Assembly: GCA_022072255.1 (NCBI GenBank)
Contig: JAJVHZ010000013.1
Coordinates: 1 to 44,179 of the forward strand
DNA from: Gammaproteobacteria bacterium
Lineage (GTDB): Bacteria; Pseudomonadota; Gammaproteobacteria; JAJPIJ01
Direction: 5' to 3'
Length of the DNA stretch: 44,179 nt
Positions 36,346 to 41,037 of this stretch are shown one piece after another. The first letter of the stretch is position 1. Every line of letters starts with the position of its first letter. The position numbers were made by a program, and so were the translations under genes. The notes under the pieces are model-generated. The model was not told where the DNA came from and ran no database searches. It was given only the letters and a program-made list of their open reading frames with translations.

Positions 36346-36819
36346 ATGCTGGAACTGCTGCTGCTGATCTTCGTGGCCAACAGCGCACCCGTCGTTGCCG
36401 GGGATCTCCTGGGCAGACGCTGGGAGCGGCCCATCGACGCCGGGCTGCGCCTGCGCGACGGGCGGCCGCTGCTGGGACGCTCGAAGACCTGGAGGGGCCT
36501 CGCGGCGGCGTTGATCGCGACCACGGCGGCGGCGCTGCTACTCGGTTCGCATTGGCGCACCGGCATGGCCGCCGGCGCGCTGTCGATGTCCGGGGATCTG
36601 ATCGCCAGCTTCAGCAAGCGGCGGCTCGGTTATGCGCCGAGCGACCGCGCGCCGCTCCTCGACAGTGTCCCGGAATCGCTGCTGCCCGCCGTGGGGCTGC
36701 GCGCGGCGTTCGCGCTCGACTGGCTGGAGGTGGCGGCCGTCGTCACCCTGTTCGCGTTCGTGGTGCGGCTGATCTCCCCGTTGTTGTACCGGCTGCACAT
36801 CCGCCGCCGCCCCTGGTAG
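36346..36819 (+). CDS. CarS-like CDP-archaeol synthase family (DUF46) membrane protein
   Basis: 157 residues with about four hydrophobic segments. It carries the family blocks RSKTWRGLAAALIATT, GDLIASFSKRRLGY and DSVPESLLP, which in archaeal CarS and the related CdsA bind CTP and metal. CarS activates unsaturated archaetidic acid with CTP. Archaeal lipids are not expected here, so the bacterial substrate is likely another phospholipid or isoprenoid phosphate. The start was placed at ATG 36346, after GGAG; a longer frame to 36283 lacks similarity. It precedes an EEP and a CDP-alcohol transferase gene. Confidence 0.82.
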   Translation: MLELLLLIFVANSAPVVAGDLLGRRWERPIDAGLRLRDGRPLLGRSKTWRGLAAALIATTAAALLLGSHWRTGMAAGALSMSGDLIASFSKRRLGYAPSDRAPLLDSVPESLLPAVGLRAAFALDWLEVAAVVTLFAFVVRLISPLLYRLHIRRRPW

Positions 36820-36859
36820 CGATCATCCCGGCGCCGTATCGCCTCATTTGTCAGCGCGC

Positions 36860-37618
36860 ATGACCACGATCGACTTCAGCATCATCACCTACAACATGCA
36901 CAAGGGATTCAGCGGCGACGGACGGCGGCTGTTCGTGCTGCGCCACATGCGCGAGGCGCTCGCCGCCGCCGGCGCCGACGTCGTCTTTCTGCAGGAGGCT
37001 CAGGGCGAGCATCGCCAGCACGCCGAGCGCGTGCAGCATTGGCCGGGGAACTCGCAGTTCGAGTACATCGCCGACACCCTCTGGCCGCACTACGCGTACG
37101 GCAAGAACGCGATCTACGATCACGGCCATCACGGCAATGCCATCCTGAGCAAGTATCCGCTGCTCGCCTGGGAGAACATCGACGTCTCGCCGTACCCGTT
37201 TGCCGCCAGTCGCAGCCTGTTGCACGGCCGCATACAGATCCCGGAGACGGGCGTGAACCTGCACCTGGTGTGCATCCACTTCGGATTCATCGGCCTGGAG
37301 CGGCGCCCGCAGATCCGCCGGCTCTGCCGCCACGTCGAGGAGCACATCCCGCACGCGGAGCCGCTCATCCTGGCCGGCGACTTCAACGACTGGTCGGCCC
37401 GCGCCGAGCGCGAGATCAACGCCGAACTGGGTCTCGTCGAGGTCTTCCGCCTGCTGCGCGGCCGCTATGCCCTGACCTACCCGGCTTGGGCGCCGGCGCT
37501 GCCGATGGATCGGGTATATTGTCGCGGCGTCACGCCCGTGGCCGCGGAATGCCTGTCGGCGGAGCCCTGGCACGTGCTCTCGGACCATACGCCGCTGCAG
37601 GCGTGGTTCCGCCTGTGA
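36860..37618 (+). CDS. YbhP-like endonuclease/exonuclease/phosphatase (EEP) family protein
   Basis: 252 residues, no signal peptide. Metal-dependent EEP fold with the Asn site in ITYNMHKGF, the Glu in FLQEAQGEH, LAGDFNDW for the catalytic Asp/Asn and SDHTP for the catalytic His. YbhP, of this type, sits beside cardiolipin synthase ClsB in E. coli, and this protein is beside a CDP-alcohol phosphatidyltransferase, so a lipid substrate is plausible. Start ATG 36860; the TTG at 36848 is the alternative. Coupled to the next gene by a GTGA overlap. Confidence 0.85.
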   Translation: MTTIDFSIITYNMHKGFSGDGRRLFVLRHMREALAAAGADVVFLQEAQGEHRQHAERVQHWPGNSQFEYIADTLWPHYAYGKNAIYDHGHHGNAILSKYPLLAWENIDVSPYPFAASRSLLHGRIQIPETGVNLHLVCIHFGFIGLERRPQIRRLCRHVEEHIPHAEPLILAGDFNDWSARAEREINAELGLVEVFRLLRGRYALTYPAWAPALPMDRVYCRGVTPVAAECLSAEPWHVLSDHTPLQAWFRL

Positions 37619-38226
37619 AACGCGCCGCGAACGACGACACGCCGCGCTGGTCGCTGGCCAATGCGCTGACCGCGTTCCGCCTGGTGATCGCCGCGCCGCT
37701 CATGCTCGTGTTCGCGATCGCCGGCCAGCGCGAGTTCTTCCTGTGGATGCTCGTGGCCTCGTTCTTCACCGATTTCATCGACGGCACGGTCGCACGGCTG
37801 AGCGGACCACCGAGCCGCTTCGGCGCCGTACTCGATTCCTGGGCCGACGTCACGGCGTACGTCGCGATCGCGATCTCGGTCTGGCTGTTGTGGCCGGAGG
37901 CGGTGCGGCGCGAGTGGATACCGTTCACGGCGATCGTGGCGAGCTTCGTCGCGCCGAGTCTCGTCGGGCTTGCGAAATTCGGGCTCTTCACGAGCTATCA
38001 CACGCTGCTGGTCAAGGCGGCCGTGGCCGCGACCGCGGTCGGCCTGCTGCTCCTGCTGTGGGGCGGCCCGGCCTGGCCGTTCCGGTTGGCCGCGGCGCTG
38101 GCCGGGTTCGCGGCGCTGGAGGAGATTGCCATCACCTCGGTGCTCGAGGAGCCGCGCTCCGACGTGCGCGGGATATTCGCGGTATGGCGCGCGCGGCGCC
38201 GGGGAGGTGGCGCCGGGAACGCCTGA
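37615..38226 (+). CDS. CDP-alcohol phosphatidyltransferase family protein
   Basis: 203 residues with about six membrane helices. The active-site motif is complete: D53-x2-D56-G-x2-A-R-x8-G-x3-D74-x3-D78. It transfers a phosphatidyl group from CDP-diacylglycerol to an alcohol, as in PgsA or cardiolipin and phosphatidylinositol synthases. The acceptor is unknown. GTG start at 37615 overlaps the stop of the EEP gene. With the CarS-like protein it could form a lipid pathway from activation to head-group transfer. Confidence 0.88.
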   Translation: MKRAANDDTPRWSLANALTAFRLVIAAPLMLVFAIAGQREFFLWMLVASFFTDFIDGTVARLSGPPSRFGAVLDSWADVTAYVAIAISVWLLWPEAVRREWIPFTAIVASFVAPSLVGLAKFGLFTSYHTLLVKAAVAATAVGLLLLLWGGPAWPFRLAAALAGFAALEEIAITSVLEEPRSDVRGIFAVWRARRRGGGAGNA

Positions 38227-38308: not shown

Positions 38309-39490
38309 GTGGCCGAACCCGGCACATTCCGTTATCGCGCGTTCCTGAGCTACAGCCATCGCGATCGCGAGCTGGGAGACCGGCTGCACAGGGAGCTCGA
38401 GAGCTATCGCGTTCCGCGCGCTCTCATCGGCAGGGGCACGGCCTTCGGCCACGTGCCACGCACGCTGCGGCCCATCTTCCGGGACCGCTACGATCTCGAG
38501 GCAGGCCATTCGTTGCGCGAGCAGCTCATCGAAGCGCTGGCGGCCTCCGAGGCCCTGATCGTCATGTGCTCGCCCGCCGCGGCCGCCAGTCCGTACGTCA
38601 ACGAGGAGATCCGGCTGTTCAAGTCGACGGGACGGGGGCAGCGGGTCTACCCGGTCATCGTCGCGGGTGAGCCGGGTGACCCGCAGCGGGAGTGCTTCCC
38701 GCCGGATCTCCTGCGGCGGGTCGGCGGCGATGGTCACGTCACGGGGGAGCGTGAGGAGCCGATTGCCGCCGACCTGCGCGATCACGGCGACGGCGCGGAG
38801 CTGGCGCGCCTGAAGCTGATCGCAGGGCTGCTCGGCGTCGATCTCGACGAGTTGCGGCAGCGCGAGGAGATCGAACGCCGTCGCCGGCAGCGCCGAGTCC
38901 TGGCGTTCGCCGGTGCGATGGCCCTGCTTGCCGTTCTCGCCGCCGGCTTCGCCGTCTATTCGCGGGTTCTCAATCGACGCCTCGAAGCGGCCCTGGCGAG
39001 CGAAACGGCGGCGAGGAATGAGGCGCAGCGCCGCTACGAGCAGGCCGTGGATTCCACGTTGCGCCTGGTGACGATCGCAGCGACGTATCGCAGCCTGAGC
39101 GATGGCACGCCGTTCCAGACCTCGCAGGTCGCCGAGAAGGGCGCCAGCGACGAGTTCCAGGCGTTCCTGGCGACCACCGATCGTCCCGAGGAGATCTGGT
39201 TGCAGCTGGTGCGCGTCCTCATGAATTTCCACGATCAGCCGCCTCCGGAACTGCGACGCTACCGTCGGCAGCTGGAGGAGCAGAGCATGAGACTGCAGTG
39301 GGCCGAACACGCCGGGGTGATCATGGGCAATCTGCTCCGGCGCGACCCGGATCGGGCCGAGTACCGCAGTCAGTACGAGATCGTGCGACGCGAGATCGAG
39401 CGGCTGGGCGGGCGGCCACGGGCAGCGGACTCGTCGAACGGCGACGGAGTCGACCTGCATCGCGCTCCGAACTCGGCCACGGAGCCCTGA
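38309..39490 (+). CDS. Membrane-anchored TIR-domain protein
   Basis: 393 residues. The TIR domain (about 8-130) begins with RAFLSYSHRDRELGDRLHRE and contains SPYVNEEIRLFK, with the Glu (99/100) that would be catalytic in NAD-hydrolysing TIRs. A basic linker leads to a transmembrane helix (about 197-217, VLAFAGAMALLAVLAAGFAV); the remaining 175 residues are helical and unassigned. Bacterial TIR proteins serve in NAD depletion, phage defence or protein-protein signalling. No defence genes surround it. Start GTG 38309, after GGGGAG. Function beyond the domain is unknown. Confidence 0.85.
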   Translation: MAEPGTFRYRAFLSYSHRDRELGDRLHRELESYRVPRALIGRGTAFGHVPRTLRPIFRDRYDLEAGHSLREQLIEALAASEALIVMCSPAAAASPYVNEEIRLFKSTGRGQRVYPVIVAGEPGDPQRECFPPDLLRRVGGDGHVTGEREEPIAADLRDHGDGAELARLKLIAGLLGVDLDELRQREEIERRRRQRRVLAFAGAMALLAVLAAGFAVYSRVLNRRLEAALASETAARNEAQRRYEQAVDSTLRLVTIAATYRSLSDGTPFQTSQVAEKGASDEFQAFLATTDRPEEIWLQLVRVLMNFHDQPPPELRRYRRQLEEQSMRLQWAEHAGVIMGNLLRRDPDRAEYRSQYEIVRREIERLGGRPRAADSSNGDGVDLHRAPNSATEP

Positions 39491-39622: not shown

Positions 39623-40282
39623 TCAGCAGGCGGAGCGCGATGCCGGCATCCGAAGCGCGCGCCACCGGCAGATCGCGATCTCGATCGCCGCGAACAGGAT
39701 CAGCAGATACCCCAGCCACTCGCCGGGCTCCTCGACGTAGCGCTTGACGGCGTGAACGTGTTGTTCCGGCAGAAAAAGGCGGAGAAACGGCCGGTGGCCG
39801 GTCAGCTGTGCGAACGGGCCGGCGACCACCGCGGCGGCCCAGAGCAGGATCGACACGTAGTGGCCGAGCAGCCAGTCCACGCCGCGCCTGAAGCTGCCGC
39901 GGTAGCGCACCGCCAGCACGACGCCGAGCAGCAATACCGGCAGCGTGACCGCCTGCCAGCCGCCGTGCGGCAGGAGATCGTCGAGCAAGCCATCCAGCTC
40001 GCGCGCGCCGGCCCCCGCCGTGAGGGCGCACAGGACGATGTGCAGACCCCGCATCTCCGCATCGGCATAGCTGAGCGCGAGAAAGACCAGGGTGCTCAGC
40101 ATCAACTCGAGGAATTGACACCATTCGACGAGGCCGCCCTCGCCGAGCACCGTAAAACCGCCGCGCTCGATCAGCAATCCCAGTGAGCCGACGCCGATCC
40201 ACACCACGCCAAGATACAGGCACAGGCGTACGAGGAGCCAGCGCTTGCCGGATCCGGGCATCGTTACCGAATCTGCCCTCAT
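39623..40282 (-). CDS. Conserved-looking multi-pass membrane protein of unknown function
   Basis: 219 residues with about six hydrophobic segments, for example LVRLCLYLGVVWIGVGSLGL, LPVLLLGVVLAVRYR and ILLWAAAVVAGPFAQL. Charged residues in and near the membrane (ARELDGLLDDLLPHGG, HAVKRYVEEPGEWLGYL) could form a polar site. I do not recognise the family. It is encoded downstream of a PAP2 phosphatase in the same direction with 65 bases between, so a lipid-related role is possible. Start ATG 40282, or 40261. Confidence 0.7.
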   Translation of the reverse strand: MRADSVTMPGSGKRWLLVRLCLYLGVVWIGVGSLGLLIERGGFTVLGEGGLVEWCQFLELMLSTLVFLALSYADAEMRGLHIVLCALTAGAGARELDGLLDDLLPHGGWQAVTLPVLLLGVVLAVRYRGSFRRGVDWLLGHYVSILLWAAAVVAGPFAQLTGHRPFLRLFLPEQHVHAVKRYVEEPGEWLGYLLILFAAIEIAICRWRALRMPASRSAC

Positions 40283-40347
40283 CGTTCTCGTTCTCTGGTC
40301 CTCAAGGGGGATCCTTGCCGGGGTGATACGCTGGTGCGGCGTCGCCA

Positions 40348-41037
40348 TCACGGCGTCGCCGGCGCCGGCGGCTCCGGAAGCCAGCCCATGCGGCGGAACG
40401 CCGCGTCCACGAGCAGCGCCGTGGCGTAGACGGCGAAGAAGGCGAAGATCACGTCGCTGAGGAAGTGCGCGCCCTGCACCATGCGCATCAACCCGGCATA
40501 GCTGCCGGCCAGCAGGCCTGCTGCCATCCACCAGCGCCGTCGGCGGGGATCGACGAAGCCGAAACTCAGCAGAAAAAAGCCCATGGAGGCATGGCCGCTG
40601 ACGAACGAGCAGTTCGAGTCGCAGGCCTGGGAGATGACGAAAGGCGGCGTGAACGGCGAGCTGCCGCCGAACTCGGTGACCTTGTCGGGGCGGGCGCGGC
40701 CGAACTGATCCTTGAAGAGGCCGTTGACGACCAGGCCGGGTCCGAGCGCCAGCACGAGCATCAGGAACGCGGCCCGCGGCAGCAGGGGGGCCAGGCCGCG
40801 GCGGAAAAGGACCAGGCTGAGCACGATCAGGAGGCACAGCGCACCGATGATCACGTCGCGCATTACCTTGACGCCCTCGTACGACCAGAGCGCCGGCGCC
40901 GCCTTTTTCCAGAAGAAACCGCCGGCCGGATCGAAGAACAGGCCGCTGACGGCCAGATCGATGCCGGGGAACAGGAGAAACAGCGCGGCCAGGAGCAGGC
41001 AGGCCGGAATCCAGGGGTGTCGACGCAGAAAACGCAT
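40348..41037 (-). CDS. PAP2-family membrane phosphatase
   Basis: 229 residues. The three-part phosphatase signature is present: K109-x6-R116-P117, S147-G148-H149 and R185-x5-H191-x3-D195. Around six membrane helices. PAP2 enzymes dephosphorylate phosphatidic acid, undecaprenyl or lipid A phosphates (LpxE-like). The substrate is unknown. Starts at ATG 41037. Confidence 0.88.
   Translation of the reverse strand: MRFLRRHPWIPACLLLAALFLLFPGIDLAVSGLFFDPAGGFFWKKAAPALWSYEGVKVMRDVIIGALCLLIVLSLVLFRRGLAPLLPRAAFLMLVLALGPGLVVNGLFKDQFGRARPDKVTEFGGSSPFTPPFVISQACDSNCSFVSGHASMGFFLLSFGFVDPRRRRWWMAAGLLAGSYAGLMRMVQGAHFLSDVIFAFFAVYATALLVDAAFRRMGWLPEPPAPATP

What the first reader, a model, noticed from the sequence alone, without database searches (positions are those of the whole stretch)
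36346..38226. CarS-like, YbhP-like and CDP-alcohol transferase operon: possible unusual phospholipid route
A CTP-activating lipid enzyme of the archaeal CarS family is encoded with a lipid-linked EEP protein and a head-group transferase with a full active site. The order suggests activation and then head-group transfer, with the EEP protein editing or hydrolysing an intermediate. A PAP2 phosphatase is nearby.
Basis: inference. Interest (0 to 1): 0.6.

Follow-up and report, generated by a model that had tools for sequence, protein, structure and literature searches.

The report
Bacterial CarS-like lipid activation gene module
Three neighbouring genes look like a small extra assembly line for a membrane lipid, built around a bacterial cousin of an archaeal lipid enzyme, and the same cousin keeps a phosphoesterase beside it in many other bacteria, which makes an overlooked lipid pathway testable.

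Summary
At 36346-38226 (+) lie a CarS-family CTP transferase (PF01864; model matches the CDP-archaeol synthase structure 5GUF, Z 18.0), a YbhP-family EEP hydrolase (43% identical to E. coli YbhP over 247 residues) and a CDP-alcohol phosphotransferase with a complete active-site motif. The last two genes overlap by 4 bases. Ordinary CdsA-type, PgsA and PssA genes lie elsewhere and no GGGPS was found, so this is neither the essential phospholipid route nor, on present evidence, an archaeal-lipid route. CarS-like genes of this bacterial branch have recurrent partners: a YaeI/LpxG-like metallophosphoesterase within 1.5 kb in 45 of 80 loci (fused in four other genomes), or a CDP-alcohol transferase like the window's in 12 of 80, 8 of these with the EEP gene. 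EEP and metallophosphoesterase are never both beside CarS (0 of 80). Six YbhP-family genes in genomes without that transferase all lie beside ClsB, a cardiolipin synthase, as in E. coli. Best reading: an accessory CDP-lipid branch with its own phosphoesterase. Substrate, head group and hydrolysed bond remain unknown; no chemistry was tested. The nearby PAP2 gene is not part of it.

The parts
36346..36819 (+). CarS-like CTP transferase (bacterial branch), 157 aa, five helices
   Evidence: PF01864 53.5 bits; 5GUF by sequence 2.6e-13; model pLDDT 93.9, Z 18.0, rmsd 1.8 over 140 residues to 5GUF; only PF01864 gene found in the genome
36860..37618 (+). YbhP-family EEP hydrolase, 252 aa
   Evidence: PF03372 82.1 bits; 43% identity over 247 residues to E. 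coli YbhP; EEP fold by Foldseek
37615..38226 (+). CDP-alcohol phosphotransferase, 203 aa, GTG start overlapping the EEP stop by 4 nt
   Evidence: PF01066 63.2 bits; motif DFIDGTVAR-x8-G-x3-D-x3-D complete in the sequence; its D, G, A and R positions are invariant in 13 of 13 aligned relatives; below every NCBIfam equivalog cut-off

Best explanation
The three genes encode an accessory membrane-lipid branch. Step 1 (inferred from family and fold): the CarS-like protein transfers CMP from CTP to a lipid phosphate, most likely phosphatidic acid since no archaeal-lipid precursor enzyme was found, giving a dedicated CDP-lipid pool separate from CdsA's. Step 2 (inferred from family and complete motif): the CDP-alcohol transferase replaces CMP by an alcohol head group. 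Step 3 (inferred from association): the YbhP-family EEP enzyme hydrolyses a phosphate bond of the product or of the CDP-lipid itself; in most relatives of this CarS branch a YaeI/LpxG-like metallophosphoesterase is the partner instead, so a phosphoesterase seems part of the unit whichever fold supplies it. Shown here: gene identity, predicted fold of CarS, recurrent linkage, fusion with the metallophosphoesterase, and ordinary phospholipid genes elsewhere. Not shown: any activity, substrate or head group.
For: Families and fold. Linkage: within 1.5 kb of the CarS-like gene in 80 loci, metallophosphoesterase 45, CDP-alcohol transferase 12 (13 printed; L061 rests on a 38-bit shadow frame), EEP 8, none of the three 24. 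Class draw of 369 genomes: CarS-like 65, metallophosphoesterase 53, both 46, Fisher p 1e-35; 38 of the 46 within 1 kb or fused. Fusion: a 466-aa ORF with CarS 7-153 and Metallophos 240-400; four genomes show both hits in one frame. Over 70 CarS-positive genomes: EEP 19, metallophosphoesterase 44, both 3, neither 10, p 1.2e-6. Ordinary PgsA (TIGR00560 187.3, cut-off 109.1), PssA (TIGR00473 126.6, cut-off 107) and CdsA-type genes elsewhere; no PF01884. All 18 metallophosphoesterases scanned match the models of LpxG, an enzyme that cleaves a nucleotide-diphospho-lipid, and YaeI; the member printed is below both cut-offs.
Against: No activity of any member of this branch turned up in the papers searched. 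CarS-like scores 71.4 against a cut-off of 148 for CDP-archaeol synthase and has Glu where 5GUF has Asp in an aligned motif. 24 of 80 loci have none of the three partners nearby (a few of these end soon after the gene); 10 of 70 genomes have neither phosphoesterase. On the CarS tree the sign test for EEP against metallophosphoesterase had too few independent pairs (median p 1), so the genome-level p values are inflated by kinship. The triad in one order on one strand was seen only in the window, L041 and L042.
Confidence: 0.55

Rival explanations
1. Hydrolysis is the point: the CarS-like enzyme makes CDP-lipid and the partner phosphoesterase (EEP or metallophosphoesterase) splits it to CMP and lipid phosphate, a control or turnover cycle; the CDP-alcohol transferase is an optional extra.
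For: The commonest unit is CarS-like plus metallophosphoesterase without a dedicated transferase (43 of 80 loci, 44 with the spurious L061 call set aside) and the two are fused in four genomes. The metallophosphoesterase resembles LpxG. A calcineurin-superfamily enzyme that hydrolyses CDP-alcohols is known (PMC3407115, start of abstract in the search listing).
Against: A cycle that only returns the starting lipid phosphate wastes CTP. The window and 12 of 80 loci keep a transferase next to CarS. LpxG likeness is far below the model cut-off (66.2 against 350 for the member shown).
Confidence: 0.25
2. The CarS-like protein serves archaeal-type (isoprenoid, glycerol-1-phosphate) lipids.
For: Family and fold of archaeal CarS.
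Against: No GGGPS family (PF01884) match in the host genome, which is 95.5% complete; the bacterial branch differs from 5GUF in the DQxD motif; ordinary CdsA-type, PgsA and PssA genes present.
Confidence: 0.04
3. The three genes are neighbours without a common pathway; EEP is a nuclease or general hydrolase.
For: Foldseek's nearest solved folds include the DNA-acting TDP2; 24 of 80 loci have CarS-like without any of the partners nearby.
Against: Recurrence in distant loci in different gene orders and a 4-nt gene overlap; EEP is a close YbhP relative, and YbhP sits beside the cardiolipin synthase gene clsB in E. coli and beside a ClsB homologue in 6 of 10 further loci looked at.
Confidence: 0.1

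Closest known systems
Archaeal CDP-archaeol synthase CarS (5GUF, Aeropyrum pernix)
   Same: Pfam family, five-helix fold (Z 18.0, 33% identity over 140 aligned residues); the KT, GD and KRR regions align
   Different: Glu after an inserted Pro (DQxPE) where 5GUF has Asp (DQLD); below the NCBIfam cut-off; bacterial host with CdsA-type genes and without GGGPS
E. coli ybhP-clsB-ybhN operon
   Same: YbhP-family EEP gene beside an enzyme that makes a phospholipid
   Different: ClsB is a PLD-type enzyme (family label recalled); the window has a CDP-alcohol transferase plus a CTP transferase instead
E. coli ynbABCD
   Same: Second CTP transferase, CDP-alcohol transferase and a phosphatase-type gene together
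   Different: YnbB is CdsA-type. The host has its own YnbAB-like pair at C16 (42% and 46% identity to YnbA and YnbB), so the window module is separate
LpxG / YaeI metallophosphoesterases
   Same: Closest NCBIfam models of the partner gene in most relatives (18 of 18 scanned)
   Different: The member printed is below both cut-offs; no such gene was found in the window genome

Membership tests
CarS family PF01864 | Profile match over curated cut-off | tested here: met
   53.5 bits against 22
CarS family PF01864 | CarS fold | tested here: met
   Predicted model: Z 18.0 to 5GUF, next best 6.9
CDP-archaeol synthase (NF003114 equivalog) | Score over equivalog cut-off | tested here: not met
   71.4 against 148
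CDP-archaeol synthase (NF003114 equivalog) | Asp pair holding Mg and K, as in the CDS superfamily | tested here: inconclusive
   D84 invariant in 44 of 44; Glu110 aligns with the Asp of DQLD in 5GUF. That this Asp is the second dyad residue is my inference from CdsA (PMC7018664, passages)
CDP-archaeol synthase (NF003114 equivalog) | Host makes GGGP-derived lipids | tested here: not met
   No PF01884 in G000; the same search rings in 7 of 14 control genomes
CDP-archaeol synthase (NF003114 equivalog) | CTP-dependent CMP transfer to lipid phosphate | not testable with these tools
   No assay
CdsA | CDS signature KDx5PGHGGx2DRxD (PMC7018664 passage) | tested here: not met
   Absent from the window protein; PGHGGVLDR(V/L)D present in L008 and L007
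YbhP family | Full-length similarity to E. coli YbhP | tested here: met
   43% over 247 residues; YafD only over 86 residues
YbhP family | Gene beside clsB, as in E. coli | tested here: not met
   No ClsB match in the 44-kb window
CDP-alcohol phosphotransferases PF01066 | DxxDGxxARx8Gx3Dx3D motif (recalled) and profile | tested here: met
   Sequence; 63.2 bits against 22
PgsA, PssA, Cls-type and PIP-synthase equivalogs | Score over any equivalog cut-off, which would name the head group | tested here: not met
   All below cut-off for the window protein, best 44.5 against 180

The most novel reading that the evidence does not exclude
The bacterial CarS branch is a widespread, undescribed CDP-lipid system with a dedicated phosphoesterase, in which the window's CarS plus CDP-alcohol transferase plays the part that the PLD-type ClsB plays beside YbhP elsewhere: a second, CTP-driven way of making a cardiolipin-like or related phospholipid, finished or edited by YbhP. 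The Asp-to-Glu change in the motif may mark a changed substrate or reaction.
Probability: 0.2. Interest if true: 0.7.

Novelty: new variant of a known kind. Interest (0 to 1): 0.5.

Why it matters
In the class sampled, 65 of 369 genomes carry this CarS-like gene. I found no work on the bacterial branch: the listings show CarS papers on archaea and archaeal-lipid engineering only, and the search for 'CDP-archaeol synthase' with 'metallophosphoesterase' gave 0 papers. If it makes its own CDP-lipid pool, bacteria have a lipid branch parallel to CdsA that annotation hides behind an archaeal name. The CarS-phosphoesterase fusion and the YbhP-ClsB versus YbhP-CarS-transferase alternation give direct, testable leads to the function of YbhP.

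Tried and rejected
PAP2 and the TIR gene as parts: their homologues appear in only 1 of the 80 related loci, the same-genus L041, together with the whole surrounding stretch. Archaeal-lipid reading: no PF01884. Head group from NCBIfam: no model over cut-off for the window transferase or for the four relatives scanned singly; the group of 13 matches the Cls, archaetidylinositol-phosphate, PgsA, PssA and PIP-synthase models alike. Solved structures: no phmmer match for EEP alone; its profile gives only weak EEP and sphingomyelinase-type matches; no match for the metallophosphoesterase profile. EEP Foldseek hits are generic. PADLOC: nothing for EEP, a weak 20.7-bit match for the TIR protein.

Results against me: the tree-based sign test is uninformative (6 independent pairs on starred branches, median p 1). 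EEP against metallophosphoesterase needs 3 changes on the CarS tree, so independent events are few. The exclusivity has three exceptions at genome level, G394, G400 and G402; in G394 and G402 the EEP is beside ClsB, in G400 (L125) it is not. G400 and G415 have a transferase of the window's type as well as the metallophosphoesterase, and so has L115/G379, there next to CarS. G376 and G378 have CarS and transferase without either phosphoesterase. 7 of 53 metallophosphoesterase genomes have no CarS-like match and 19 of 65 CarS genomes no metallophosphoesterase.

Counting notes. The 80 loci were picked by the pattern [LI]D[QS][IVL]PE[SAT]L[LFV]P, so the D, P and E invariance is partly built in; in the 29 rows, which were not picked by it, D and E are in 29 and P in 27 (L018 and L019 lack P). 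Two of 30 PF01864 loci (L028, L039) were dropped there for lack of a phmmer match to the window protein. Of 98 PF01864-positive genomes I set aside 33 as CdsA cross-hits (frame of about 265-375 aa, partial cover), by eye; 0 of these 33 have the metallophosphoesterase. Whole-genome tests covered 68 of the 80 loci; the 12 left out (L102, L103, L104, L107, L108, L109, L111, L112, L113, L114, L119, L120) are all metallophosphoesterase-adjacent. Thresholds: 1e-40 (A2, A3) and 1e-30 (A4); about 180 bits by my reading, where G385 (196 bits, cut by a contig end) counts as positive and G384 (fragment) as negative. G387 and G342 give the same coordinates and were counted once.

Full report
What is there. 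The window (G000:C15:1-44179 of a 4.27-Mb, 95.5% complete assembly) holds three + strand genes at 36346-38226: CarS-like, EEP, CDP-alcohol transferase. The gap between the first two is 40 nt and the last two overlap by 4 nt.

CarS-like protein. PF01864 at 53.5 bits, 5GUF at E 2.6e-13 by phmmer and 1.8e-19 by profile. AlphaFold gives five helices at pLDDT 93.9 that superpose on 5GUF with Z 18.0 and rmsd 1.8 over 140 residues; the next best, the CdsA of 4Q2E, has Z 6.9. The bacterial branch has DQxPE where 5GUF has DQLD; Glu aligns with Asp and Pro is an insertion. In 29 rows not selected by this motif the Glu is in all and the Pro in 27. The window reads DSVPE; Ser for Gln is seen in 3 of 81. 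By the review PMC7018664 (passages) CdsA uses an Asp dyad for Mg and K; that the exchanged residue is the second of the dyad is my inference.

EEP protein. It is 43% identical to E. coli YbhP over 247 residues and only locally similar to YafD. The E. coli gene lies in ybhP-clsB-ybhN; a Salmonella study cloned these three as the clsB operon (PMC9241728, passages). The model (pLDDT 83.1) has the EEP fold with generic nearest structures.

CDP-alcohol transferase. Complete motif, PF01066 63.2 bits; nearest solved relative by profile is PgsA 7DRJ at 1.8e-9; all NCBIfam equivalogs are below cut-off for the window protein, and as a group the 13 relatives match several head-group models alike. The head group cannot be named.

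Host background. Six PF01066 genes: PgsA (TIGR00560 187.3, cut-off 109.1), PssA (TIGR00473 126.6, cut-off 107), the window gene, a YnbA-like gene (42% to YnbA) next to a YnbB-like CdsA paralogue (46% to YnbB), and two at C7 without assignment. The other CdsA-type gene, at C40, carries PGHGGVLDRVD (163 bits to the NCBIfam CdsA model whose cut-off is 385). No PF01884. So ordinary phospholipid synthesis does not need the module.

Who lives next to CarS-like genes. A scan of the genome collection with the motif pattern confirmed 445 relatives; the best 80 are, by record title, in Gamma-, Beta- and Alphaproteobacteria, Nitrospirota and Acidobacteria. Clustering of neighbours showed one dominant partner, a calcineurin-like metallophosphoesterase (PF00149) closest to the YaeI and LpxG models (18 of 18 scanned). 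Within 1.5 kb: metallophosphoesterase 45 of 80, 44 of them converging on CarS; transferase 12 of 80 (13 printed, one a shadow frame); EEP 8 of 80, always with a transferase; EEP with metallophosphoesterase 0 of 80; none of the three 24 of 80. The order of the window recurs in L041 and L042; L083, L096, L105, L106 and L118 have EEP divergent from CarS-transferase; L086 has transferase and EEP together on the strand opposite to CarS; L115 has transferase and metallophosphoesterase on either side of CarS.

Whole-genome profiles. In a draw of 369 genomes of the class, CarS-like is in 65, the metallophosphoesterase in 53, both in 46 (about 9 expected from these numbers), p 1e-35; 38 of 46 are within 1 kb or fused, and in G134, G232, G247 and G343 the two hits share one frame of 475-530 aa, one of which (G343, L018) was checked by Pfam. 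Kinship is not removed from this p value. In 70 CarS-positive genomes: EEP 19, metallophosphoesterase 44, both 3, neither 10. Transferases of the window's type are in 17 of 70.

The YbhP alternation. Of the 19 EEP-positive genomes, 13 have a transferase of the window's type and 6 do not. In all 6 without it (G394, G402, G421, G422, G423, G432) the EEP gene is beside a ClsB homologue; in the 13 with it no ClsB was found beside the EEP gene in the stretch at hand, which for L040, L105 and L125 was short. Thus YbhP goes with a phospholipid-making enzyme of either kind. This is the basis of the novel case, a ClsB-like role for CarS plus transferase, and it is an inference from gene order.

Evolution. 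A CarS tree of 81 rows puts the window with L041 and L042 (starred) among metallophosphoesterase genomes, apart from the other EEP clade around Nitrosomonas; 3 changes of partner are needed among EEP-only and metallophosphoesterase-only rows. Partner exchange in the window's lineage is therefore likely, but the independent-pairs sign test has no power (6 pairs).

Mechanism and confidence. I commit to a CDP-lipid branch: CTP activation by the CarS-like enzyme, head-group transfer by the CDP-alcohol transferase, and a phosphoesterase step by EEP. Whether EEP removes a phosphate from the product or splits the CDP-lipid is open; I hold these about equally likely. Nothing here shows activity. The module is a new variant of known parts, worth testing because partner and fusion evidence is strong while no function of this bacterial branch was found in the papers searched.

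Noticed in passing
window 38309-39490 +: TIR-domain protein directly downstream of the transferase (TIR_2 48.1 bits); a homologue among the 80 loci only in the same-genus L041 (79%); weak SAVED_TIR match in PADLOC.
   Followed up: partly
window 40348-41037 -: PAP2 protein nearest to lipid A 4'-phosphatase LpxF (135 bits, cut-off 400), next to another - strand frame at about 39623-40300, both conserved in L041.
   Followed up: partly
G000:C16 53528-57984 (L006, L007): YnbA-like and YnbB-like pair with an acyltransferase-looking frame after it (by eye): a second accessory CTP-transferase/CDP-alcohol-transferase unit in the same genome.
   Followed up: partly
L018:562-1959 (-); also G134, G232, G247: Single proteins joining CarS-like and calcineurin-type phosphoesterase domains.
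   Followed up: partly
L043, L053, L079, L095, L099: CarS-like gene next to archease and RtcB RNA-ligase genes (Methylothermaceae, Methylohalobius and Methylococcus records); reason unknown.
   Followed up: no
G000:C7 37663-44487 (L004, L005): Two further CDP-alcohol transferases about 3.6 kb apart without equivalog assignment.
   Followed up: no
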